DNA of 64,000 nt, from assembly GCA_037893245.1 (NCBI GenBank), contig JBAIAA010000882.1, positions 434,001-498,000 on the forward strand, written 5' to 3'. The translations under genes were made by a program, and so were the position numbers. A model generated the notes under the pieces. It was not told where the DNA came from, ran no database searches, and saw only the letters and a program-made list of their open reading frames with translations. This document shows, in pieces, positions 12,760-63,808 of this stretch. Positions within the stretch are counted from its first letter, which is position 1; each line of letters opens with the position of its first letter. The stretch is from Crossaster papposus (Eukaryota; Echinodermata; Asteroidea; Velatida; Solasteridae).

Positions 12760-15700
12760 CTGCCATAATATGAATATGCATAATAACAATTTTACAAAAG
12801 TCTTTTGAGAGGTAATTTTTCTTCAGTTATCAATGTATCAACAAACTAGTATGCACATTCTTGCATGTTAATTTTCTATTTCAAGGTCTCCAGATGCGCG
12901 CCAGAAGGGGTGAACCATTAGGCTTGATTATAACGTACCACCACTTTAGGTGATCAGGAAGATAATGAACTTTGGTTTTAGTTTGTTTCGTTTGCAACAC
13001 CATGGGTGCGTTCCACTCCAGCGAACTGTTTGCGCGAACGTTCGCCAACGTTTTGAGTTGGCGTTAGTTGAAGTGGAACGATATTTTAAAAACTACGTTT
13101 TCAAAATGGCGGCGCCCAGTGAAAGTGACATCGTTTGGTTCGCTGCTTTTTGTCCAACTCATTATTTTTCTTTAAAAGATCCCTGTGAATGCTCAAAACA
13201 ATCCACCGTTTATAACGAAAAGTATAAAACGTAAATAAAAACCGTGAAAAGAACCCTGCCGTCTGCTAACCGCTTCGCCATCATTAAAATACGTCACTGG
13301 CCAACAGCGAACAGCTCGGAATGTCGTTCGCCGTTTTCGCTATCGTTGGCCAACATAATTGGCGCACATTGCGTTCCGCTCACGCGAACAACGCTAACGT
13401 TGGCCAACGTTGGCAACGTTCGCTGGAGTGGAACGCACCCCATACCTCTAAGGAGGAAGTTTTCAGAGTAGACGCCGGCACGTTGAAGATGATCGCTTCG
13501 TTCCATACTGGGTCACAGGTGTTTTTTCTAACAGTCGTTTTCTTCTTTTTGATTCGTTTGTCTCCTTGTATAAGAGTTACCTTAACGAATGGATCTGAAA
13601 TGCCGAACAAAGCAAACGAAAATTACTGCAGTTACTTGTTTTCAGATGATTCGCATATTAAACTTGTTTTGCTCAGTGTTCAATATAATTGCTGTCGAAA
13701 ACGTAAGGGGCGCTGTTAAAAGAACGTGGACCCAGGTTATTGCTGCGTTCCAATCGCGTCGTGTTTATCGTGTTCACGAGTCGTATAATGGCGTTCTAAT
13801 CGCCTGGTAACTCGTGTTCACTAGGGAAATCGAGGTGGATTTTGTCTCTATGTTCACGACTTTATGATAACGAATGAAATACTCGCGCATGTGTGTTGGT
13901 TCACGATACGAGTTCTTGCGCGATAAAGAATGTCCTTACCGCACGACTATCTCGACTGTGCGCGTGCGTCTTGGTGAGTAGCGTTAGGAATGCGACCCTC
14001 TCGTGAACATGGAGACTAGACATTCACGGTGAACACGATAAACACGACGCGATTGGAACGCAGCATATGCCTCCACTAGTTGCGACCTGGGCCCTTTTCC
14101 AAACCTCCAGGCTTCGGCTTTGGCTTCGGCTCCGGCTTCAATTTATGAGGCTTCGTCTTCATGAGGCTCCGCGACAAGCCTAAAAGTTTTGGAACACCGA
14201 GGCTTCGGGAGGCTTCGGCTGGCTTCGACTAGCGACTCTATGCCATTCGTGATGCTTCGTTACATTCCGTTGAGTTACCGGCCTATGGATGGAAACATCG
14301 CTAATGAACGGCTGAAGCAATATTATTTTGCGCCTGCTTTCACTACGGGGACAATAGACGTATCAAGGAATAAATGTAAACTTGTATGTACATGTATATG
14401 CCATTTATTCACTCAACCAAAATCTGTCTTTTCCCCTTTTCGTAACCGCGTCTGTAGACCTCTGGAAAAGGTTTTATTTTGGGCACAATTTAAATATTTC
14501 CATTAAAAAAACCACACTTTTGGGTTTTTTTTTTTTTTTTTTTTGGGGGGGGGGGGTTGCAAGTGCCAGGCCAATGCCTCATTCAAAATACTTTGTTTGC
14601 ATCGCTATTGCTAAAAACGGAATCTGCTTTTACTTCGGGAAGAGACCTTGTAATTCTTTTTTTTACGATTTGATCTGCAGATTCGATCTAAAAGTAAGAT
14701 GCACTCCTTTAATATGCTGTGTCCGTCTTTCAAGGAAATAAATATGTACTTTTTGGCAAAGAATTGTCAACCATGTATTATTTATTACTGATGGTTTATT
14801 TGGCAAACAACATGGAAAAATAAACATTTAGATTAAGACAGGGCAACATAATTACAAATCATTCAATATAAAACTAAACAAAAGATTAAATTGAGAATAT
14901 AATTAAAAAATAAGTGCTCACATAGATAATTTAAAAGACAAAACTGCAAAAGAAAATCACAATGTTAAATTAAAAAATTAACAACAAAATATTTAAATTT
15001 TGAAATTTTAATGTATCCTTTGCTGTGACTTTTGGGAATATATATTATTGAAACCCCCTACCACCAGTACCATTCTAAAACAATAATAGCTCCTTTGAAG
15101 TAAGTTTTCACAAATTTAAAGACATGCCAGGATTAGGTTTGTTTTAAAAATAGATTGAGGCCTCAAATAGAGGCTGCTCAAAACCAACCTTTTTGAAATC
15201 GCTTTTGATTGATATGTTGTAAAAATTGTACTCCTTTCTTAAAAACATGTTGTTTTCCTTGATGTAATAGTAGTTTGTGATGTACATAGATTTTTGCCTT
15301 TTAATATTTTAATGAATCTGGTTTTATCATTTTACAGTGCATTTAAATTTATGTACATAACGTTTGCACTTCATAAATAACATTATTATTGCCAGGCCTA
15401 CATTTTATACTTTAAGACTTTCTACTGCTGACAATTGATTATTTGAAATATAATTTTCCCCAGCATATAAACAAATACCAACTGTCATTTGTAGTGCAGG
15501 CATAGGCATTATAAATAAGAGAGTTGAGTTAAGTTGACCAGGACCTGTTCCAATAATTCCATGCTGTTCCAGTGTTTACAAACAACATAAATAGGGAGTG
15601 AATAGTTTTTCTTCAAAATTGGGAGATTTAGGGGAGCAAATAATTATGTGAGCTCACTCAGTACAGATCTTTAGCTTTGATTGTTCAGAATATACCTGTG

Positions 15701-52268: not shown

Positions 52269-55200
52269 GTAAGTTTTCAGTTCCGTATGACATGCATGAT
52301 GAAGATGGTACACATGATTGATTGAGTGTAAAATGAATGTGCCAGTTTTCGGACAAGTCCGAGTAGGCCCAGCTAAAATAATGATTGATGGATTTCACTT
52401 TGCTAATAAATTCTTACAGATTCAGGATACTATGCATAACAATATTTTGCAGTTTTTCTCCATAGAATCTTAAAAATCCGTCATCTCAAAGACTCAAAAT
52501 CCATTTTTGCAGTAGGCAAAGAAAGGACATGAAGAAAGCGGCGCGGGCGAGGATGCTAAACATGTTTTTTTTTACTCGGCCTAGTAACATTGGACCATTA
52601 CGCAAATACTTCTGCCATTGTGACATCACAATAGTCACAAGGAATTGTGTAAAGGAAAAAGCATCAAACATTTTTCTTTTTCATTCCCACAATCCCTTGT
52701 GACCATTTGTGACGTCACAATGACAGCGGTATTTGCGATATGGTCTATGGAGGTAGCCTATCCTGAATCTGCCGAACTCCCCCAACGTCGGGCCAAATAT
52801 GAATTAAAATAGTTTGTTAAGTTCTCATTACCACCCGCTTCAATTTTCACACTCGTCTTCACTCCTGTGAAGTGTGAACCTTCGCTTACTGCGAAATACA
52901 TTACCACACAAGCCTTCTTCTAAGCAGGCTATGCAAACAAGTAACAACTGACTGTAATTAGTATTTTGTATTTTCCATAATTGTTGTGCCCCCTTGTAAG
53001 TTGTAGGTAATTTATGATAACTTTGCTCCTCTCAATTTAATACTGCGGAAATAGGAGATAGATCTGATTAAATTTAAAAAATGAAAATTGCTCCCCAGAC
53101 TTTTTTTGAATCTTATTTTTGAGAACCTAATTGTTGTTATTACCTTTAAACTTGGCTGGTTAAGTACTAAGGTCCTTGTCTTGACCTCAAGGAAATGTTG
53201 GAATATGTTGTCAGCTAAAGAGTGAGTTGGCCTAAACTTTATTTTGCATGTTTTTTACCACTTTTTTAGGTCGGAGCCTAGAGTTTCAGACTTTCTAAAA
53301 AAATAATAAAAAACCCAAAAAACTGCACATCAAGTACACAGAAGCAGTTAAACTTCCAGCCATTGCTTTGAAGCCATCAAGGTCAAGTCTTGCCCCAATA
53401 TCCTGTCCGTAAATAGACGGGCGTATAATTTAAGGAAATGCTCGATTTGTAAACAACTAGGGAATGGCTTATCGTCTTCTGTGATCTTGCCAGGTTTTCT
53501 TTGGAGAGTTCTCTGTAGTCCCAGCCCATGGGTCTACGTTGGTGACTAAGGGCTATTGCAGGAAGCCAAATGATTTTTAATTTTTATATTTGTTGATAAC
53601 GTATTTTAAATTCACATGGGACCAGAAAATGTTGTGTTATCATCATCTTGCACGCAATTATTGAGTTGCCTACAATTTTTGAAAAGACAGAGTTGCTCTG
53701 TGTGTAAAACCTAAGATAATTTCTGCAACAATTTCCCTTTAATTTATTTCTCATCATTTGCTCTGAAACTTTGCAGTTAATTGCTATTGGTCTTTATTCG
53801 TTTTTGTCTCGCCTGAAAGAAGATCAAGAAGAGACGACATGTACGCAATCACTATTTCTGTACAGTACGTTGTACACATAGTCTGTATGTGTCATTTTTG
53901 TCAGTTTCAAAAAAATTGGTCTTGCATGCAAAGTTGAAGTCCAATTGCAATCAAACTTGGGTCATAGATGCAATTTATAACACCTCACTCACAGATTCTG
54001 TGTCTTGATTGGCCGAGAGCGCGTCACGTGTCACTTGCTATTTTTACTATTTTTTACTTGCGCTCCAAAAAGACTATACCACGCAGCCTCGTTCTGAAAA
54101 AGTACTATGCGCATAGCAACACACGTACTATGCGCATAGCAACGAAAGCGTGACTGAAACCCAGACGTGTGTTTCGGTGCATTGCGTAAACATTGCTCTA
54201 TCACCCTCGCACCCATTCATCAAGGCAACAAAGTACACGTATGATAGTTTGATCACTGAATTTGTTGTCATTACTATACTTTCAGGAAGCTTAAATTGTG
54301 CAGAATCTGTGAGTGAGGTGTTATAAAACAAATATTGACTGCTTTATTTCGCGGTATAGTAAAACTAGCCTCCCTCGGTGATCCATGGAGCATTCTATTT
54401 TCCCTCGGCTTCGCCTCGGGAAAATAGAATGCTTCATGGATCACCGAGGGAGGCTAGTTTTACTATACCACTCAAAGCATTCAATATTTGTATAATGTAA
54501 ACTTGCATGTCAAATTTGTAACTCTTGGCGCAATCGAGGCATGGCAGTTAACACAACTATCACAGCCTACCAATATCAAATGTACTTACACGGGTCCAGT
54601 TTACAGAACTGTTAAAACTGATCACTTGATATTTGAGTTCAGGCACAAGTCCCTTCATAAAGCTTGAATAATGACAGGTTGAATAATGACAAAGGACTGC
54701 TTTTGTTAACAGTTCATTTGAATAGCTAGTGACTTGACTTGAGACTGAAAAACTTGTGATGGACTTGCAGGGACTTGCAGGGACTTGCAGGGACTTGCAG
54801 GGACTTGCAGGGACTTGCAGGGACTTGCAGGGACTTGCAGGGACTTGCAGGGACTTGCAGGGACTTGCAGGGACTTGCAGGGACTTGCAGGGACTTGCAG
54901 GGACTTGCAGGGACTTGCAGGGACTTGCAGGGACTTGCAGGGACTTGCAGGGACTCGAATACAAGTTGCCAGATAGATTTTGATAGGAAGAATATCTGGC
55001 TCGATCATCAATCAAGTTGTTGAAAACTGAATGTTTTTGTTTTTTTGTTTTTTTACTAAGTATTGACTGGTTTTTGTTTTTGATTCAAGTTGTAAACAAT
55101 GAAATATCATACAAACAAATAATTGATATTTTTTGGGGGTAACAGATGCATTCTTGGCAGATCTCCGACCAGCTACTGAGGATGAAACAAGACGTAGAGG

Positions 55201-58200
55201 TCTGCTACTTTGCTGCTCAGACAATGCGATCTAAGGTGCGTAAACATTGGATTTATATTACAAGCATGTTGATGAACAGTACACACTGTACATGTAAACA
55301 AAAGTGTATAAACATCCCTAGAAATTTGTACATTTCAAAGAGTGATCCTTGGGGTGAGGTTCTTCACAACTCTTCCGAGATTGGAGGTCGAAAGTCATCT
55401 AGGGGTCATTTTAGCCCCTTGATAAAAAAACACACACCAAAAATTGACCTTTTTAAAGCACATTTGTTGTATCACTTGTTTCTTATTTTCTAGATCCAAT
55501 ACTCTTTCCACGAGCTGCCAGCGGACTCCCACCAAGCCCTGAGGGACTCGCTCATTAACCATATTGAGAGTCTTAACGATCCCAACTACCAGATAATCCT
55601 GACCCAGCTCTGCCTGGCCCTCTCCGACTTGGCTCTGCAGATGGTCATGTGGAAGAACTCTCCCAATTTTCTCATCCAGAGGTACGCGTTTGGTGCAACC
55701 AGGGATGTAGTTGGATCCACTCACAAGTCCAATCTATCAGCAAGAGTGGATGCAAGGAATGCTCCTTTGAGAAGCTTGTGATCAGATTTGAATTGAGACT
55801 GGAAGACTTGTGATGGACTTGCAGGGTGTTGTGATTTTAAGTACCTGCTTGAAATCATTTTTCTGATTTTTTTTGTTTACCCCAATTAGTGGAGCAGATT
55901 TCTTTAAATTCATAAATTGATAACAATCATTGTTAATGGTTACATAATCTCCTTTTTCACAGGTTCGCTGCCGGTACCTCCCAGATTCCTATCCTCCTTG
56001 AGTTACTGACGGTGCTACCAGAGGAGATCCATAGCCGGTCCTTGCGTCTCGGCATGAACAGGAGAGAAGAGTTCACTCAGGAGTTGGCCCAGGTGGCTCC
56101 GACTGTAGTCCAAATAATGGTAAGCGTTTTACCCCTAGAAAAGTGTTCACACACGAGTTGGCCCAGGTTGCTCCAACTGTGGTCCAAATCATGGTAAGCG
56201 TTTCACCCCCAGAGAAGAGTTGGAGTTGGCCAGTCTTTCAAATTGCCACGCGAATACTGGAATCGATGCTCTGTGAACTAGAATCGGCTACATCAGAGAA
56301 TCGATTCTGCAAACGATTCCGATTCCTAGTTTAAAATTGATTCCTCTCTATTCTGGTGTGAAATTACCCAATCCTAGTGGCTACTGTCACAACCTATACA
56401 AAAAAAACCCTTCCTCTTTCATAGCTTATGAGTTATGATAGGGTTTGATAAATAGAGTAGCTGGCTGCGTTTTGGCAATGAGAAGGAGGGTTAATTTAAG
56501 AGAGATTCTTGTTGGTCCTTGATTTCCCAGGGAGCCTGCTGCGAGACATCCATGGGCGATCATCGTCTCTTAGGCAGGATCTTCAAGTGTCTATCTAGCT
56601 GGTTCTGTCCCGGCATCTTACCTAGCAATGATGTTGCCGGCAGCTCGATAGTCAACTTGCTCCTCGATGTCCTGGTGAGATGCTCAAGTCTTTTACCTCA
56701 TTTCACGCTTTCAAGTATTCCAACTTTCCCTACTTTTTTCCAGTTTTTGTGTTGTCTAAACAAAGTTTATGGAGACCTTGATCAGTCCTAAATTCTTTAT
56801 TATTGTACGTAGCCTTGCAGGATCGTATGTCGTACTGCAATTATGTAATTTAAAGTAATAGATTCAGTTTAAAAAAAAAAAAAAATTACCCATTGAAAAA
56901 AATCCCCTTAACCAGTTCGCGCCGGGATTATTTTAACAACGCCGAGCCGACGGGCGGGATTATTTTTAACGAAACTCGATCCGAAGCGTGTTCAGGCTGA
57001 TAGTGCCGGGAAGCACACCCACGCATTTCCGGCCTTGCGCGCTGCTGACATACATTTCCGAACTTGAACTTGGCGTGTTTGTGCGTCATCCGTTTTGAAT
57101 TTTTGAAAATTTTTGAGTTTATATACGTCATCCGGCGCGAACTGGTTAAACAAATAAACCAATGTACCTTTTACTTCCAACAATTTTGATCAACATTTTT
57201 GAAAGTTTTTGTGGGCTTAGTGAGCAGGGGTAATAATTGTAGCACCGCGAGCGCTGTTATTGGTGGATACGTGCGCTTTATAAATATCCATTATTATTAT
57301 TATTATCATAGATGACAATTTTTTACAAAATGGACTTAAAAAATCACCTGTATTGGTTTAATACTAGAATACTAGAAATACGTCAAAATTAATTGTTATA
57401 TGATTTTTTTATTTTATTTTAGAAGAAGCCTGACACCCCGTCCATGCTTCACGAGGCAGCCAGTGATTGTATCTGCTCAGCCCTGTATGCTATGGAGGAT
57501 ATAGAGGAGCATCTATCCCTGGCTGAGACGCTGTACACTGGAATCATGCAGTTACCCGAATCCTATTCACTGGTTGTTGCCAGCGAGGACGTGGATAAGT
57601 AAGAACCACATTTTTGACCTGTCGCTACAAAATGAGCTTATAATTCTATAAATAAAAATATTTAAATGCGCTTTACAAAACAAAACTAAAGAAATCCTTA
57701 AAATACATTAAAAAGTTCAAATTTCAAAACAAGTTTAAAATGCACTAAAATAGTTATTATAAATTTAAGTTATTAAAAACTAAAAAAGAAGTAATAAGAA
57801 ATTATACAATTAAGACATTACAGAGACAATGATGGGATTCATTAAAAGAGTCCTCATATCTAGTTTGAAGAAATTTTTAGCTTTTCCTAGTTTACCTTTT
57901 CTCCATCTTGAAACATTGACGTAACTCGTGGGTGACGAGAGAAATCATGTCAGGGGGCTAGGTTGATCCAGTTTATAGACTAGCTAGTCAAACCACGCAG
58001 TGTACGATTGACAACTAGATTGACTATGGTTAAAGTCTAGTGGACTCTAGTCACTAGTTGCTAGTCACTAGTTGCTAGTTGCTAGTCCCAGTTGCTAGGG
58101 GTTTCATTGGTCACTTAACCCTAACCCTCCAGGGTATTTTGGCTAGAAACCCTGCCAGACGCAACAGATTGCATACTTTGTCACATTGACTTGTGTGCAG

Positions 58201-61200
58201 AGTCTAGCAAGGTCAAGCAGTCACCACAGATGCACTGTGCTGGATCTGGCAGGGTTATGGTTAAGCCTGCTGCCAAAGATGCCCCAAGTTTGATTGATTT
58301 ACTGGAAATATTTAAAATATAAAAAATATAATTTTAGTCTGGGTCTCATTGGTTAAACGCAATTTTTTTTTCTGGAAATTCCCAGGGCAGTCAACTACAG
58401 CAGAATATTTACAGAGCTGGCAGAAGCATTCATGGAAGTCATGGTTGAAACCCCAAATCAGGTACGTACGACATCAGATACATCTCTGATAATGTCTCAA
58501 AATAAACAGCATCACATTTTCTTTCCACCGTATGCCAACAAAAACCACCAGTTAATAGTGACAAATATATTATTGAGACTTATTTGTGGGGACTCGGTCA
58601 GAAATGTGTCCATGTGAGCCACGTTTTGTTTATTTTTAGGGTCTTGGAGACTTGAGTATTCTGGACGCTGTGCTGACCTGCGTAGGCCACTGTCAGTACG
58701 AGGTGGCGGAAATCACCTTCAACTTCTTCTACCGCCTCTCTGAGATTCTCTACAAGAGGCGACAGGACAAACTGAATGAGATCTACCGACCCTACATAGA
58801 GAGACTCGTCAGCGCCTTGAGCACTCACTGTCAGATGGATTCAGATCACGTGAGTTTTTGTGTCGCCTAATAAGTTGGGGAGACTGACCAGTCTTAAACT
58901 CTTTATGAGTATGACTGTATCTCCGCAACATTCTTGACGTTTCAGTAGCTACTCAGCAGAATACTCTCTTGATGTCGGCATTTCTCGACCTTCGTTCCTT
59001 TACAGGAAGGAATCCCAGAAGAGAATGATGACTTTGGCGATTTCAGGATCAGAGTCTCGGAACTCATCAAAGATGTCATCTTCCTGATTGGCTCAACCAC
59101 TTGCTTCTCACAGGTACGCTGCCTTACGACAAAAGATCCTAATAATGTATCTTACTTAGAACGCTTTAATTTTAGTAATGTAACGGTGTAGCCGAGAGCT
59201 TAGTTGAGAATGGAGCACAAGTGAGTATAGCAGGTGCCAAATGAGGCTTATGATGGAGTGGGCGACACACGTGACCTGCTGTTCACGTTTTTTCATGTTT
59301 TTTTTAATTTATTTTTCTGACTTTATTTGTACAGATGTTTCGAAACCTAGCTAGCCAGGGTTCAGCTGTCACGTGGTATGTCACCGAAGCTTCACTGTTT
59401 GTCATGTCGTCGGTTGCCAAGAATGTACTCAGGTGATTTTTTTATTCAAGTTTTTTCAGATTTGAGTGTTTTAGGTCGCCTAACCGCGTGACCCAAAATG
59501 CTCAAAATTGGGTTTTGGAGTTTTCCCATGTATGGCCAAATAATTACAGCAAATTTAAAGAAATCTGTAAATGGACGCAGAAAAGTGTTAGATTTGACAC
59601 AGAATGACCCTTTTTTTTTTCGTATCCTGTGGACGTCAATTGTTCGCAGGTCCACCGTACATATGAAATGTTCGTACAAACACAGAAGTAGTTGTTGAAG
59701 TGATGACTGTGTATCTCTAATAATTTAATAATAATAATAATATTGTGTTGTTTCAGTGATGAGAATGGCGTGGTTCCTCAGGTCATCCAAGCCATCTTAG
59801 CTCTTCCAGACGAGACCCACGTTGCCGTTAAGTACACGAGCATCCAGATGCTAGGAGAACTATCGGAATGGATCGACAATCACCCACAGACTATCGGTAA
59901 AATCAGTGCTGATCGCAAGCTATCAGAAGTCTGTCACAAGATGGTCACAAGATGGTCACAAGATGGTCACAAGTCACTCACGAGACAGTTACAAGTCAAT
60001 CAATGAAATTGTTTTGTGGGTGCCTTTTGGGGCATCATTTACTAGTCGCTGAAACAGTTTTGCCAGGTGAAAAAATCTTTAGACTGAGACTTTCATATTT
60101 CTAAAACACCCTGTCTCCCACTTTTCACGCAGAGCCCATTCTCAATTTCCTGACCAGCGGTCTGCGCAACAGCCAGCTGTCTTCGGTGGCAGCCACTGCA
60201 ATCCAGCACATCTGTATGAGGTGCCAAGACCACCTGGCTTCACACTTGGAGGGCCTCCTACAGATTGCCCAGGCCGTGGACGCCTTCAACCTATCACAAG
60301 AGGCTGCCTTAGGGTTGATAGAAGGTAAGGGTCACGGTAGAGCAAATGTACGAGGTGCCAGGCCCACTCCTACAGATTGCTCAGGCCGTGGACGCCTTCA
60401 ACCTGTCGCAAGAGGCTGCCTTAGGGTTGATAGAAGGTAAGGGTCACGTTAGAGCAAATGTAAGAGGTGCCAGGCCCACTCCTACAGATAGCCCAGGCTG
60501 TGGACGCCTTCAACCTGTCACAAGAGGCTGGCTTAGGGTTGATAGAAGGTAAGGGTCACGGTAGAGCAAATGTACGAGGTGCCAGGCCCACTCCTACAGA
60601 TAGCCCAGGCTGTGGACGCCTTCAACCTGTCCCAAGAGGCTGCCTTAGGGTTGATAGAAGGTAGGGGTCACGGTAGAGCAAATGTACGAGGTGTCAGGCC
60701 GTTAACGCCTTCAACCTGTCGCAAGAGGCTGTCTTAGGGTTGATAGAAGGTAAGGGTCACGGTAGAGCAAATGTACGAGGTGCCAGGCCCACTCCTACAG
60801 ATTGCCCAGGCCGTGGACGCCTTCAACCTGTCCCAAGAGGCTGTCTTAGGGTTGATAGAAGGTAAGGGTCACGTTGGTGCATCTGTACGAGGTGCCAGAC
60901 CCACTCCTACAGATTGCTCAGGCCGTGAATGCCTTCAACCTGTCACAAGAGGCTGCCTTAGGGTTGATAGAAGGTAAGGGTCATGTTAGAACATCTGTAT
61001 GGGTGCCAGGCCCACTCCTACAGATTGCTCAGGCCGTGGACGTCTTCAACCTGTCCCAAGAGGCTGCCTTAGGGTTGATAGAAGATGAGGGTCGCATGTC
61101 AGAGTATCTGGACGAGGGGCCAGGACCACTTGGCCTCACACATAGTTGGGGTTAAATTCAACAACCCAACACAATGAAAAAAAACACATTCGAAATGGCA

Positions 61201-63547
61201 AGAGGCATACATCTGTATTTTCATCTTCTCGATATGACAAATCTATGTCTTGCATTTTCATTTCATGTTCCATGTTTTTTAAATTATTGTTGTAGGTACG
61301 GCATTAGTTTTGACGAGGATGCCACTAGAGAAGATACAGGACGGTCTCAAACAGTTGATGCTAGCACAGGTCACTCCGCTTAATCAGGCAAGATTAGAAA
61401 CAGTTCACCGTAAAATGCATAAAACGTTTGTAAGGCGTCCTGGCAAAATAAGACAGAACTGGGCAGATGACGAAGTCAGGTTTGCTGGTATTAGGAAAGA
61501 CAATAACATTCTCCTTACAGTACTGTTTGTTTCACTTCAATCGGACATTCTGTTGACGAGTTATAGCTGTTTAAAGTTTGCGGTTATGGACATTTTCAAA
61601 CGGTATAAACCTGGGGAAATATATGCCAGGTGATCATTTCAACTTAATCTTTGCTTTTCTGGTACTTTACGCAGGTGTTAAAAGCAGATGCTGAACGGAA
61701 GTCCAGTTTGTCCAGCGATCCGACTATCTGGCTTGACAGAATAGCTGCAATATTTAAGTATGTCTGCCGCCTTCTTAACACTCGTCAATTCTTGAATCTT
61801 GTGGGACATGACCTTCCAATAAAACTAAAATATAGCTAACTCTTCAGTCGAATCTCAAGGACTTCTTTTATTATTTTCTTCAAGATGACAGCATGCCAGA
61901 AGGAATAAATTTCCAGGGAGTTTAGATTCGTTCATATCTTTACATTTAAGTACTTTCCAACAATTACTTTGTTGGTTACTTTTTGGGTGGTTGCAAAAGA
62001 TATACTGTCCCATTAAAAGGCATGTCGTAAAAATTCACTAGTTTTGTTTTTTGATGTTTGCAAATATATCCCTAGAATCACTGACTCATGCAAACTTCAC
62101 TTGAAACTGATCTTACATTGAGGATTTGTTGTAATTTTTATTTCCACGTTTTATTTTAGAAATACAAACCCTGCCATTACCAACGGGCAGACCCATCCAT
62201 GTCAAGCCATCCTGCAGGAGATCTGGCCAGTACTATCCAACACGTGCAATAAATATCAGGGTGATATCCGCATCATTGAGCGGTGCTGTCGGTGCATACG
62301 CTTCGCTATCCGCTGTGTGGGCAAAGGATCAGCACTGCTCCTAACTCCACTAGTCACGCAGGTCAGGCAACTTTTTCTTCCCTTGAATGCAAGGCTGTCT
62401 GTGCTTGACTCTTGGGCATCAAGACTTAGGGTGCCGCCTAAGATCCTCCCTTACTAGGATCCTCCCTTATATTACGTGGTGCTTGGCCTTCGGGCTACAT
62501 GAACGAACTGGGGAGAAAATAGCTTTGAGTTAAAGGCTGTCTGTGCTTGACTCTTGGGGATCAAGACTCAGGGTGCCGCTTAGGATCCTCCCTTATATTA
62601 CGTGGTGCTTGGCCTTCCGGCTACATGAACGAACTAGGGAGAAAGTAGTTTTGAGTTAAAGGCTGTCTGTGTTTGACTCTTGGGCATCAAGACTTAGGGT
62701 GCCGCCTAGGATCCTCCCTTATATTACGTGGTGCTTGGCCTTCGGGCTACATGAACGAACCGGGGAGGAAATAGCTTTGAGTTAAATGCTGTCTGTGCTT
62801 GACTCTTGGGCATCAAGACTTAGGGTGCCGCTTAGGATCCTCCCTTATATTACGTGGTGCTTGGCCTTCGGGCTACATGAACGAACTAGGGAGAAAGTAG
62901 TTTTGAGTTCAAGGCTGTCTGTGTTTGACTCTTGGGCATCAAGACTTAGGGTGCCGCCTAGGATCCTCCCTTATATTACGTGGTGCTTGGCCTTCGGGCT
63001 ACATGAACGAACTGGGGAGAAAGTAGTTTTGAGTTAAAGGCTGTCTGTGTTGTATGGGCCAATATTGCTGGTCGTAGTTTAGCTAGCTTGCCCACCTGGG
63101 CTTCACACAGCGAAACCTTGATCAACTACACGCACAAATCCCACACTGTGCGGGCGTACATGTAACCGTGTATAAGCCCTCACCTAGTTATGAGGACAGG
63201 CTCTTTGAAAAAACCAGATTGAGTAGTGGGGACATTTTTGAGTCCCCATAGCACATTGGGTCTTCAGTAAAGGTAGAACAAGTTAAAAATTGGGTTGGGG
63301 TATAATAAAAGAAAATGTAGAAGAAGACAAATTAGGGTGATGTTGAAAATTAAACTACTTTTGTATTTTTAGAAATGAACCAAGTTACACATTGAGTAAT
63401 GAACCTTTTTGATCATGTGTTTTGTCCTAGATGGTAACAATATATCAGGCACATCAGCATTCGTGTTTCCTATACCTCGGTAGTATATTAGTCCATGAAT
63501 ATGGTGACGATGTTGGCTGTATACCTGGCATCATAGACATGCTACAA
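52152..63547 (+). CDS. TNPO3: Transportin-3, N-terminal 724 codons (16 exons, runs off window)
   Basis: Coding exons: 52152-52268, 55146-55235, 55494-55681, 55963-56119, 56531-56674, 57423-57598, 58386-58461, 58640-58849, 59006-59113, 59335-59432, 59757-59896, 60133-60324, 61296-61369, 61675-61757, 62160-62361, 63431-63547. All are GT-AG and every phase matches. The product follows human TNPO3 throughout (for example [52 protein letters not shown]). Known role: importin-beta-family (HEAT-repeat) receptor that carries SR splicing factors into the nucleus and releases them on RanGTP. Exon 1 begins the importin-beta N-terminal region; exon 15 carries the arginine-rich helix region that in the human protein contacts phospho-SR cargo. 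About 200 C-terminal residues are beyond 64000. Introns hold several tandem arrays, two derived from its own exons. Confidence 0.96.
52588..52748. mobile_element. Foldback element in TNPO3 intron 1
   Basis: The left arm (GGACCATTACGCAAATACTT, CATTGTGACATCACAATAGT) and the right arm (TTGTGACGTCACAATGACAG, GGTATTTGCGATATGGTC) are inverted. About 160 bp with arms near 60 bp. No ORF. Confidence 0.72.
53975..54326. mobile_element. 352-bp element with perfect 26-bp inverted ends
   Basis: TTATAACACCTCACTCACAG plus ATTCTG at the left; the exact inverse at the right. The interior contains a direct repeat of ACTATGCGCATAGCAAC. No coding. It lies in TNPO3 intron 1 and directly touches the palindrome at 54329-54490. 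Confidence 0.85.
54329..54490. repeat. Near-perfect 160-bp palindrome
   Basis: Arms of about 75 bp run from CAAATATTG through GGTATAGTAAAACTAGCCTC and ATTCTATTTTCCC to a short CTTCGCC-type loop, then back. The inner 55 bp or so of each arm differ at only one or two positions. Hairpin-forming on either strand. Confidence 0.9.
54761..54955 (+). repeat. Minisatellite, 10-bp unit, 19 copies
   Basis: Nineteen identical copies of GGACTTGCAG followed by a partial unit. Because 10 is not a multiple of 3, all frames are open and give the repeating peptide [10 protein letters not shown] (plus strand) or [10 protein letters not shown] (minus strand); these are not genes. It lies in TNPO3 intron 1. Confidence 0.98.
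55146..55235 (+). CDS. TNPO3: TNPO3 exon 2
   Basis: 30 codons, phase 0 to 0, [20 protein letters not shown] to QTMRSK. The YFAAQT motif is the second helix of the Ran-binding N-terminal part. Confidence 0.95.
55494..55681 (+). CDS. TNPO3: TNPO3 exon 3
   Basis: 188 bases, phase 0 in, 2 out. [20 protein letters not shown] and [13 protein letters not shown] match the next HEAT repeats of the human protein. Confidence 0.95.
55785..55826 (+). repeat. Solo copy of the minisatellite seed
   Basis: TTGAGACTGGAAGACTTGTG then ATGGACTTGCAGGG matches 54739-54772, the left edge of the 10-bp array, but with a single unit. It lies in TNPO3 intron 3. Confidence 0.75.
55963..56119 (+). CDS. TNPO3: TNPO3 exon 4
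   Basis: 157 bases, phase 2 in, 0 out at GTAAGC after VVQIM. Contains [20 protein letters not shown]. Its last 40 bases and donor are repeated just downstream. Confidence 0.95.
56120..56232 (+). repeat. Tandem copies of the exon 4 end and its donor
   Basis: GAGTTGGCCCAGG at 56081 (exon 4) recurs at 56155. The copy continues to ATCATGGTAAGCGTTTCACC, so exon end, donor and intron start are all duplicated at a spacing of 74 bp. A third, shorter piece begins at 56223 (GAGTTGGCC). The copies differ from the exon at several positions. Confidence 0.88.
56531..56674 (+). CDS. TNPO3: TNPO3 exon 5
   Basis: 48 codons, phase 0 to 0. [15 protein letters not shown] parallels the human KVFRCLGSWFNLGVL. 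Confidence 0.93.
56908..57149. mobile_element. TTAA-flanked MITE, copy 1 of 2 (242 bp)
   Basis: TTAACCAGTTCGCGCCGG at the left and the exact inverse at the right, including TTAA on both sides as for piggyBac or Kolobok insertions. The interior shares GGGATTATTTTT, CGATCCGA, GGGAAGC and GTCATCCGTTTT with 63567-63808. No ORF. Lies in TNPO3 intron 5. Confidence 0.85.
57215..57311 (+). mobile_element. LINE or SINE 3' tail
   Basis: GCACCGCGAGCGCTG, GTGCGCTTTATAAATATCC and then (ATT)n at 57289-57306. The same kind of tail follows the two LINE ends at the left of the window. No ORF part is present. Confidence 0.55.
57423..57598 (+). CDS. TNPO3: TNPO3 exon 6
   Basis: 176 bases, phase 0 in, 2 out. 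[20 protein letters not shown] is nearly the human sequence. Confidence 0.95.
57940..58140. repeat. Degenerate CTAGTTG/CTAGTCA array
   Basis: Short units of CTAGTTG and CTAGTCA recur from about 58035 to 58100 in TNPO3 intron 6. Simple-sequence expansion. Confidence 0.65.
58386..58461 (+). CDS. TNPO3: TNPO3 exon 7
   Basis: 76 bases, phase 2 in, 0 out. [20 protein letters not shown], then ETPNQ before GTACGT. Confidence 0.92.
58640..58849 (+). CDS. TNPO3: TNPO3 exon 8
   Basis: 70 codons, phase 0 to 0. [20 protein letters not shown] and [15 protein letters not shown] match human TNPO3. Confidence 0.95.
59006..59113 (+). CDS. TNPO3: TNPO3 exon 9
   Basis: 36 codons, phase 0 to 0. [20 protein letters not shown] and [10 protein letters not shown], a strongly conserved segment. 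Confidence 0.95.
59335..59432 (+). CDS. TNPO3: TNPO3 exon 10
   Basis: 98 bases, phase 0 in, 2 out. [18 protein letters not shown] corresponds to human WEVTEAVLFIMAAIAKSV. Confidence 0.92.
59757..59896 (+). CDS. TNPO3: TNPO3 exon 11
   Basis: 140 bases, phase 2 in, 1 out (GTAAAA). [20 protein letters not shown] is highly conserved. The frame stays open past the donor to 60005 through a short repeated CACAAGATGGT block at 59936-59971. Confidence 0.93.
60133..60324 (+). CDS. TNPO3: TNPO3 exon 12
   Basis: 192 bases, phase 1 to 1. [40 protein letters not shown] and [15 protein letters not shown]. Its 3' part and GTAAGG donor are repeated in tandem immediately downstream. The first donor (60325) was chosen because it joins exon 13 in frame as EGTALVLTR, like human KGTALVLAR. 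Confidence 0.92.
60209..61154 (+). repeat. Tandem duplication of TNPO3 exon 12 end plus donor, 8 units
   Basis: Donor-side landmark GATAGAAGGTAAGG-like positions: 60321, 60433, 60545, 60657, 60746, 60858, 60970, 61081. Spacing is 112 bp except one 89-bp unit and a last one of 111. Each unit holds the exon's CTCCTACAGAT, AGGCCGTGGACGCCTTCAAC and TAGGGTTGATAGAAG, then about 20 intron bases. Six units keep GTAAGG, the fourth has GTAGGG and the last has GATGAG. The final unit also keeps a diverged copy of the upstream CCAGGACCACTTGGCCTCAC part. The first unit is the true exon. Confidence 0.93.
61296..61369 (+). CDS. TNPO3: TNPO3 exon 13
   Basis: 74 bases, phase 1 in, 0 out. [20 protein letters not shown], then MLAQ. 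The donor GTCACT is weak but placed exactly by homology. The frame stays open for 87 more codons past it. Confidence 0.88.
61675..61757 (+). CDS. TNPO3: TNPO3 exon 14
   Basis: 83 bases, phase 0 in, 2 out. [16 protein letters not shown] matches human SSDPTVFLDRLAVIFR. Confidence 0.93.
61871..62011 (+). repeat. Dispersed repeat (GATAGCT family), copy 4 of 4
   Basis: TTTTCTTCAAGATGACAGCA, TGCCAGAAGGAATAAATTTC, CAGGGAGTTTAG and TTTGTTGGTTACTTTTTGG, then GCAAAAGATATACTG. Longest match to 18371-18500. In TNPO3 intron 14. Confidence 0.65.
62160..62361 (+). CDS. TNPO3: TNPO3 exon 15
   Basis: 202 bases, phase 2 in, 0 out. [30 protein letters not shown] and the arginine-rich [18 protein letters not shown], which in human TNPO3 forms the helix that contacts SR cargo. 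Confidence 0.96.
62393..63055 (+). repeat. Intronic satellite, 126-bp unit, five copies plus a partial
   Basis: GGCTGTCTGTG-like unit starts at 62393, 62535, 62661, 62787, 62913 and 63039. The first unit is 142 bp owing to an internal repeat of GGATCCTCCCTTA; the others are exactly 126. Words: GACTCTTGGGCATCAAGAC, GTGGTGCTTGGCCTTCGGGC. The unit is a multiple of 3, so one frame stays open; I do not think it is coding. It begins only 31 bases after the exon 15 donor. Confidence 0.92.
63431..63547 (+). CDS. TNPO3: TNPO3 exon 16 (last in window)
   Basis: 39 codons, phase 0 to 0. [20 protein letters not shown], ending IIDMLQ at GTAAGT. The remaining exons lie beyond the window. Confidence 0.95.
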
Positions 63548-63566: not shown

Positions 63567-63808
63567 TTAACCAGTTCGTGCCGAGATTATTTTGACATTG
63601 ACCGGGCCTAGGCCCAGGTGCGGGATTGTTTTTCACGAACCTCAATCCGAGACAGGTTCAGGTTGGCATCTGTGGGAAGCTAACCCTGATCGCTGTGAGT
63701 CGGTTGCTGACAGATATTTCCAGACTTGCTCATGGTGTGTTTATCCATCCGTTTTAAATCCAGAAAAAACTTTGCGCGTGTACACGGCATCCAACGCGAA
63801 CTGGTTAA
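63567..63808. mobile_element. TTAA-flanked MITE, copy 2 of 2 (242 bp)
   Basis: TTAACCAGTTCGTGCCGAG at the left and CCAACGCGAACTGGTTAA at the right. Same length as copy 1 at 56908, with more divergence between its ends. It begins 19 bases after the exon 16 donor region of TNPO3. Confidence 0.8.

What the first reader, a model, noticed from the sequence alone, without database searches (positions are those of the whole stretch)
60209..61154. A TNPO3 exon end and its splice donor copied in tandem into the next intron
Eight units (the true exon plus seven) carry the 3' part of exon 12, the donor and about 20 bases of intron; seven keep a GT and six of those an intact GTAAGG. Each unit also has an acceptor-like CCCACTCCTACAG, so a 61-base pseudo-exon could be included repeatedly. 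The 112-bp period is not a multiple of 3, so use of a later donor shifts the frame and usually meets a stop. TNPO3 imports SR splicing factors, so donor choice in this gene could in principle act as a feedback switch. That last step is speculation.
Basis: partly seen in the sequence, partly recalled or inferred. Interest (0 to 1): 0.75.

Follow-up and report, generated by a model that had tools for sequence, protein, structure and literature searches.

The report
Duplicated exon-intron boundary in TNPO3 intron
The end of one exon of an animal nuclear-import gene, with its splice signal, has been copied seven times into the next intron, a kind of repeat already described in lancelets, and nothing in the sequence shows that it acts as a switch.

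Summary
It lies in an animal TNPO3 gene. Exon 12 ends at 60324. Seven units follow (spacing 112, 112, 112, 89, 112, 112, 111), then a partial exon-like tail to 61141. Of eight donor positions 7 keep GT and 6 are GTAAGG.

Corrections: each unit is about 18 nt of intron start plus exon 12 sequence with a 22-nt internal deletion. The "acceptor" CCCACTCCTACAG is therefore coding sequence; its core is in exon 12, is missing from U4, and scores below all 15 real acceptors placed. All 7 later donor positions and all 63 pseudo-exon combinations give a premature stop. The exon 4 donor has a second such duplication (2 of 16 donors, 0 of 15 acceptors scanned).

This matches "mirages", exon-intron boundary minisatellites of lancelet genes, which PMC3087553 (RT-PCR) and PMC3902484 say do not disturb splicing. 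Best reading: a neutral, recombining minisatellite whose first donor is normally used. Lancelet origin is inferred. The SR-feedback idea has no support; donor conservation is not above chance. A weak excess of synonymous differences hints at exchange with the exon.

The parts
60133..60324 (+). TNPO3 exon 12 (192 nt), source of the copies; donor AAG|GTAAGG
   Evidence: gene model; human transportin-3 match; donor ranks first of 16 with a recalled human-like matrix and fourth of 16 with the gene's own left-one-out matrix
60210..60343 (+). original segment: last ~115 nt of exon 12 plus the first ~18-19 nt of intron 12
   Evidence: alignment
60325..60436 (+). unit U1, 112 nt, ends before intact GTAAGG
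60437..60548 (+). unit U2, 112 nt, ends before intact GTAAGG
60549..60660 (+). unit U3, 112 nt, ends before GTAGGG
60661..60749 (+). unit U4, 89 nt; lacks the acceptor-like motif (23 nt shorter than its neighbours); ends before intact GTAAGG
60750..60861 (+). unit U5, 112 nt, ends before intact GTAAGG
60862..60973 (+). unit U6, 112 nt, ends before intact GTAAGG; keeps exon-like CATCTGT
60974..61084 (+). unit U7, 111 nt, ends before destroyed donor ATGAGG; most diverged row when counted with the intron start that follows it
61085..61141 (+). partial tail: decayed intron start plus exon 12-like piece (61106-61141, 30 of 36 nt match exon 60210-60245) that keeps the first 13 nt of the stretch deleted in the units
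   Evidence: score 42, best of 1000 shuffles 25
61296..61387 (+). TNPO3 exon 13, whose acceptor is the normal partner of the first donor; its own donor is GC
56063..56225 (+). second boundary duplication in the same gene: end of exon 4 plus donor GTAAGC copied at 74 nt, then a short partial third piece (read by eye)

Best explanation
It is a 'mirage': a minisatellite born from a tandem duplication across the exon 12/intron 12 boundary of TNPO3, probably in a lancelet. Copying started about 115 nt inside the exon and ran about 18 nt past the donor (shown by alignment). One copy lost 22 nt and was amplified, while the edge copies (exon 12 and the tail) were spared (the pattern is shown; the amplification is inferred). 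Units were then shuffled by unequal exchange or conversion, possibly with the exon itself (inferred). In RNA the first donor is normally joined to exon 13, because among the forms modelled only that product keeps the reading frame (frame shown; usage inferred). Rare use of later donors would give transcripts fit for nonsense-mediated decay (inferred).
For: Unit anatomy. The 22-nt deletion is in the 6 of 7 units that can be scored (U4 has a larger gap there) and absent from exon 12; the tail keeps at least 13 of those 22 nt. 53 of 100 pairs of informative splits fail the four-gamete test (the exon row is included, columns with three states were recoded as several splits, and U4 was masked near its gap, so pairs are not independent). 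Same architecture at exon 4. All 7 later donor positions and 63 of 63 pseudo-exon combinations meet a stop. Published mirages share the features: units of 10-160 bp, either boundary, cluster edges spared, length changes, splicing reported undisturbed (section read; passages).
Against: The species is not established: no host genome is held and no lancelet sequence could be compared. No RNA was available. Five extra donors are letter-identical to the real one (AAGGTAAGG), so the sequence alone does not say why the spliceosome would keep to the first; exon length and enhancers are inferred reasons. Repeated mutation could explain part of the four-gamete failures.
Confidence: 0.8

Rival explanations
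1. Splicing switch: SR proteins imported by TNPO3 favour later (intron-proximal) donors, making transcripts with early stops and so damping TNPO3.
For: Five further donors identical to the real one; every later donor position gives a stop, and all but the first alternative put it 111 nt or more upstream of the exon 12/13 junction. That SR proteins favour intron-proximal donors in duplicated-donor tests is recalled, not from a call.
Against: Donor conservation is not above chance (P = 0.08 and 0.23); one copied donor is weakened and one destroyed; with the GT donors the extended exons would be 304-841 nt; published mirages are said not to disturb splicing. No paper on this turned up: (amphioxus and TNPO3) listed one paper, on IRF genes; one search listed 10 of 69, and none of those titles concerns TNPO3 regulating itself.
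Confidence: 0.03
2. Pseudo-exon array: 61-nt exon-like pieces are included through the CCTACAG acceptor-like motif.
For: Six of seven units have the motif 61 nt before a donor position; five of those six positions still have GT.
Against: The motif is coding sequence from exon 12 and scores below all 15 real acceptors; 64% of 3341 AGs on the + strand of the window score at least as well as the U1 motif. All 63 combinations, including those that use the destroyed donor, meet a stop.
Confidence: 0.03
3. Assembly artefact: repeated or collapsed reads made or resized the array.
For: Tandem repeats are often mis-sized (general knowledge); a published lancelet mirage was reported as misassembled in a draft, and another had 3 against 6 copies in two assemblies (passages).
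Against: Units differ from each other by 3.5% to 19%, with private changes and different deletions; exon 4 shows the same pattern.
Confidence: 0.06
4. The exon-like parts are kept by exchange with the true exon, so exon 12 and the array evolve together and the array is a reservoir of variants for the exon.
For: Among U1-U7, 6 of 9 variable columns of the 3' exon-like part (60255-60324) are third positions, all synonymous (P = 0.04 by position; 0.009-0.045 for synonymous change under three mutation weightings). That part varies less than the 18-nt intron-like part (U1-U7: 9 of 70 against 12 of 18; U1-U6: 8 of 70 against 6 of 18, Fisher P = 0.03).
Against: With the 5' exon-like part (60209-60232) included the excess is 7 of 13, P = 0.10. 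With the exon row and without U7 the exon-intron contrast is P = 0.07. Exon 12 has a private A at 60293 that the seven units lack. Two of the nine columns (60275, 60281) are C-to-T at CpG sites.
Confidence: 0.2

Closest known systems
Lancelet 'mirage' minisatellites (Adh3, globin BflGb6 and BflGb9, PGBD5, troponin C)
   Same: [quoted passage not shown] units of similar size (globin 150-160 bp, PGBD5 60 and 108 bp, Adh3 10-72 bp); edges spared from homogenisation in BflGb6; reported not to disturb splicing (PMC3087553, section 16 read, passages; PMC3902484, passages)
   Different: A gene not named in those passages (TNPO3), two separate arrays in one gene, both at donors; internal 22-nt deletion spread through the array; species not confirmed
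Intron gain by tandem genomic duplication (Rogers model, AGGT)
   Same: Tandem duplication carrying AG|GT creates extra splice signals (PMC3443670, passages)
   Different: Here the duplication lies at an existing donor and the acceptor of exon 13 remains; no new intron is shown
Poison exons / unproductive splicing of splicing-factor genes
   Same: Alternatives would carry early stops
   Different: No acceptor of normal strength and no RNA evidence; TNPO3 imports splicing factors and is not one itself (recalled); literature seen as a listing only

Membership tests
Mirage minisatellite | Tandem repeat units span an exon-intron boundary | tested here: met
   exon 12 end plus ~18 nt intron start in U1-U7
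Mirage minisatellite | Units carry splice signals | tested here: met
   7 of 8 donor positions GT
Mirage minisatellite | Unit length within the published 10-160 bp | tested here: met
   89-112 bp at exon 12, 74 bp at exon 4
Mirage minisatellite | Cluster edges less homogenised | tested here: met
   U7 (with the intron start that follows it) 0.81-0.88 identical to U1-U6, and the tail keeps sequence deleted in the units
Mirage minisatellite | Found in a cephalochordate genome | tested here: inconclusive
   no host genome held, no relative confirmed in viral contigs; an animal-type TNPO3 gene and G+C do not decide
Mirage minisatellite | Normal splicing is undisturbed; array length varies among individuals | not testable with these tools
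   no RNA or population data
Intron gain by tandem duplication | A new intron formed between duplicated AGGT sites | not testable with these tools
   needs TNPO3 genes of related species; the seven AG|GT sites score -1.0 to -6.0 as acceptors against 12.5 for exon 13, which is itself in that matrix
Regulated poison exon | Functional acceptor and donor with regulated use | tested here: inconclusive
   acceptor-like motif weaker than all 15 real acceptors, which speaks against it; usage itself could not be tested

The most novel reading that the evidence does not exclude
The array is a dose sensor: with five identical extra donors downstream, rising nuclear SR protein shifts donor choice towards the intron-proximal copies, whose products all carry early stops, so array length sets how strongly TNPO3 damps its own output; allele length differences would then tune it.
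Probability: 0.03. Interest if true: 0.8.

Novelty: new member of a known kind. Interest (0 to 1): 0.3.

Why it matters
Boundary-spanning minisatellites are natural tests of how the spliceosome picks one donor among identical ones, and a proposed source of new introns. Two arrays in one gene suggest that they may be common in this genome. If exchange with the exon is real, coding sequence would evolve together with intron repeats.

Tried and rejected
Whole-genome search for the array: no host genome is held. Relatives of exon 12 in viral contigs: 56 stretches matched a pattern, none confirmed. Rfam, gathering threshold: no match. Donor conservation as a sign of selection: not above chance. AG|GT of each unit as recursive-splicing point: weak acceptors. 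A third boundary duplication near 13.0-13.4 kb, suggested by control scores: it is an inverted-repeat element, not a mirage. Literature on competing duplicated donors: one search listed two papers, neither on duplicated donors to judge by title; I used none.

The splice matrices are rough: acceptor matrix from this gene's 15 acceptors (left out in turn for the real ones, all 15 for the motifs), human-like donor frequencies recalled and rounded. Exons were placed by eye against remembered TNPO3 features and then checked by frame and by the human match. The junction scan covered 31 TNPO3 junctions only, within 1 kb on each side or to the window's end; the minus-strand gene with C2 domains (3 of 10 ORF pieces matched) was not modelled exon by exon.

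Full report
What is there. The + strand from 52152 to the end of the window carries a TNPO3 (transportin-3) gene that runs off the window's end. Sixteen exons could be placed; 15 have GT donors and exon 13 has GC. The joined 730 residues match human transportin-3 over its residues 4-726 of 923 (E = 5e-278); importin-13 is the next family (E = 1.2e-49). Exon 12 is 60133-60324 and exon 13 is 61296-61387.

Anatomy of the array. The last exon-like base falls at 60324 (real), 60436, 60548, 60660, 60749, 60861, 60973 and 61084: spacing 112, 112, 112, 89, 112, 112, 111. The following six bases are GTAAGG at 6 of 8, GTAGGG at one and ATGAGG at one. Aligned with exon 12, a full unit is about 18 nt of intron start followed by about 94 nt of exon 12, from about 60210 on, with 22 nt missing (exon 60233-60254). 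U4 has a longer gap. The tail after the last donor position is again exon-like (30 of 36 nt against exon 60210-60245, score 42 against at most 25 in 1000 shuffles) and so keeps the first 13 of the 22 nt deleted in the units. The simplest account is that the deletion arose in one copy and spread, and the edges were left out. The alignment program misplaced part of the tail; the pairwise alignment is used instead.

CCCACTCCTACAG is not a new acceptor: it is the exon's own coding sequence (Leu-Leu-Gln) brought next to other exon sequence by the deletion. Its core CTCCTACAG occurs in exon 12 and in 6 of 7 units. With a matrix from the gene's own 15 acceptors, unit motifs score -7.8 to -9.6 and the exon's own copy -6.2, and the weakest real acceptor, left out, scores -3.2; 64% of 3341 + strand AGs in the window score at least as well as the U1 motif. 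The donors are a different matter: AAGGTAAGG is the best of the gene's 16 by a recalled human-like matrix and fourth by the gene's own, and five copies are identical to it.

Consequences for the protein. Extending exon 12 to any of the 7 later positions (6 of them with GT) gives a stop: for the first, in exon 13, 85 nt past the junction; for the other six, at the start of U2, 111-647 nt before it. All 63 combinations of the six 61-nt pseudo-exons also meet a stop; one of the six ends at the destroyed donor. Among these forms only the first donor keeps the frame. With downstream exons present, decay of the others is expected (general knowledge).

How the units changed. Of the 70 columns of the 3' exon-like part 10 vary over exon plus units (9 among U1-U7), and of the 24 of the 5' part 6 (4 among U1-U7), against 12 of the first 18 intron-like columns, half of them due to U7 alone. 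Among U1-U7, 6 of 9 variable columns of the 3' part are third positions (P = 0.04), all synonymous (P = 0.009, 0.03 or 0.045 under three mutation weightings). With the 5' part included it is 7 of 13 (P = 0.10); with the exon row added, 9 of 16 (P = 0.05). The contrast with the intron-like part, U7 left out, is 8 of 70 against 6 of 18 (P = 0.03), or 9 of 70 against 6 of 18 with the exon row (P = 0.07). This is weak but points to exchange with an exon under selection. Against it, exon 12 has a private A at 60293. The donor area is not unusually constant: longest invariant run 17 (P = 0.08), or 20 without U7 (P = 0.23). 53 of 100 pairs of informative splits fail the four-gamete test, some of them from recoded columns, as expected if units are shuffled, though repeat mutation could add to it.

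Not a single event. A scan of 31 TNPO3 junctions (16 donors, 15 acceptors) against their 1-kb flanks found two with strong copies, donors 4 and 12 (scores 98 and 128; the next best is 23). Against 1500 random places in the window 24 and 9 scored as high, and these lie in tandem arrays listed. At exon 4 the unit is 74 nt; of 8 differences in 56063-56119, 6 are third positions, one of which changes the residue; three further mismatches at 56060-56062 lie outside the copy and were left out. Such a bias is expected when the true exon itself changes mostly silently. A short third exon-like piece follows there too (by eye).

Comparison with what is known. Lancelet genes carry 'mirages', minisatellite-like tandem duplications of exon-intron boundaries: Adh3, globins BflGb6 and BflGb9, and others, with units 10-160 bp, either boundary, 6 and 3 copies in two haplotypes of BflGb6, spared cluster edges, and Adh3 data and globin RT-PCR that suggest normal splicing (PMC3087553, section 16 read). 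Lancelet PGBD5 has 60- and 108-bp cases, with 2 against 7 and 3 against 6 copies in two assemblies, and troponin C is named as another (PMC3902484, passages). The present array fits in each respect that I could test, apart from the species, which stayed open. That the window is from a lancelet is my inference from this likeness. I found no paper on such an array in TNPO3: the searches were made, seen as listings apart from the two papers named, and most subscription papers are not in the library.

Verdict. A real, well-read structure of a known kind, most likely neutral. The feedback switch is not excluded but has nothing in its favour beyond the extra donors and the stops behind them.

Noticed in passing
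56063-56225: Second exon-donor duplication in TNPO3 (exon 4, 74-bp unit, donor GTAAGC copied, short partial third piece).
   Followed up: yes
62454-63051: 126-bp x 4.7 minisatellite in TNPO3 intron 15, listed by TRF from 93 nt after the donor; the exon 15 donor showed no copy in its flanks.
   Followed up: partly
54761-54955: 19.5 perfect copies of GGACTTGCAG in TNPO3 intron 1; the unit ends in an acceptor-like TTGCAG.
   Followed up: no
61388-61389: TNPO3 exon 13 uses a GC donor (CAG|GCAAGA).
   Followed up: no
13004-13440: Inverted-repeat element (23-nt perfect ends, 437 nt) just inside what looks by eye like the donor of a minus-strand exon with a C2 domain.
   Followed up: partly
56908-57149 and about 63568-63808: Two elements with TTAACCAGTTCG-like ends (likeness by eye) in TNPO3 introns 5 and 16; the first has 18-nt perfect inverted ends, the second gave no inverted pair of 16 nt or more.
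   Followed up: partly
53974-54496: Nested inverted repeats in TNPO3 intron 1: 27-nt perfect arms and a near-palindrome with 57-nt arms.
   Followed up: no
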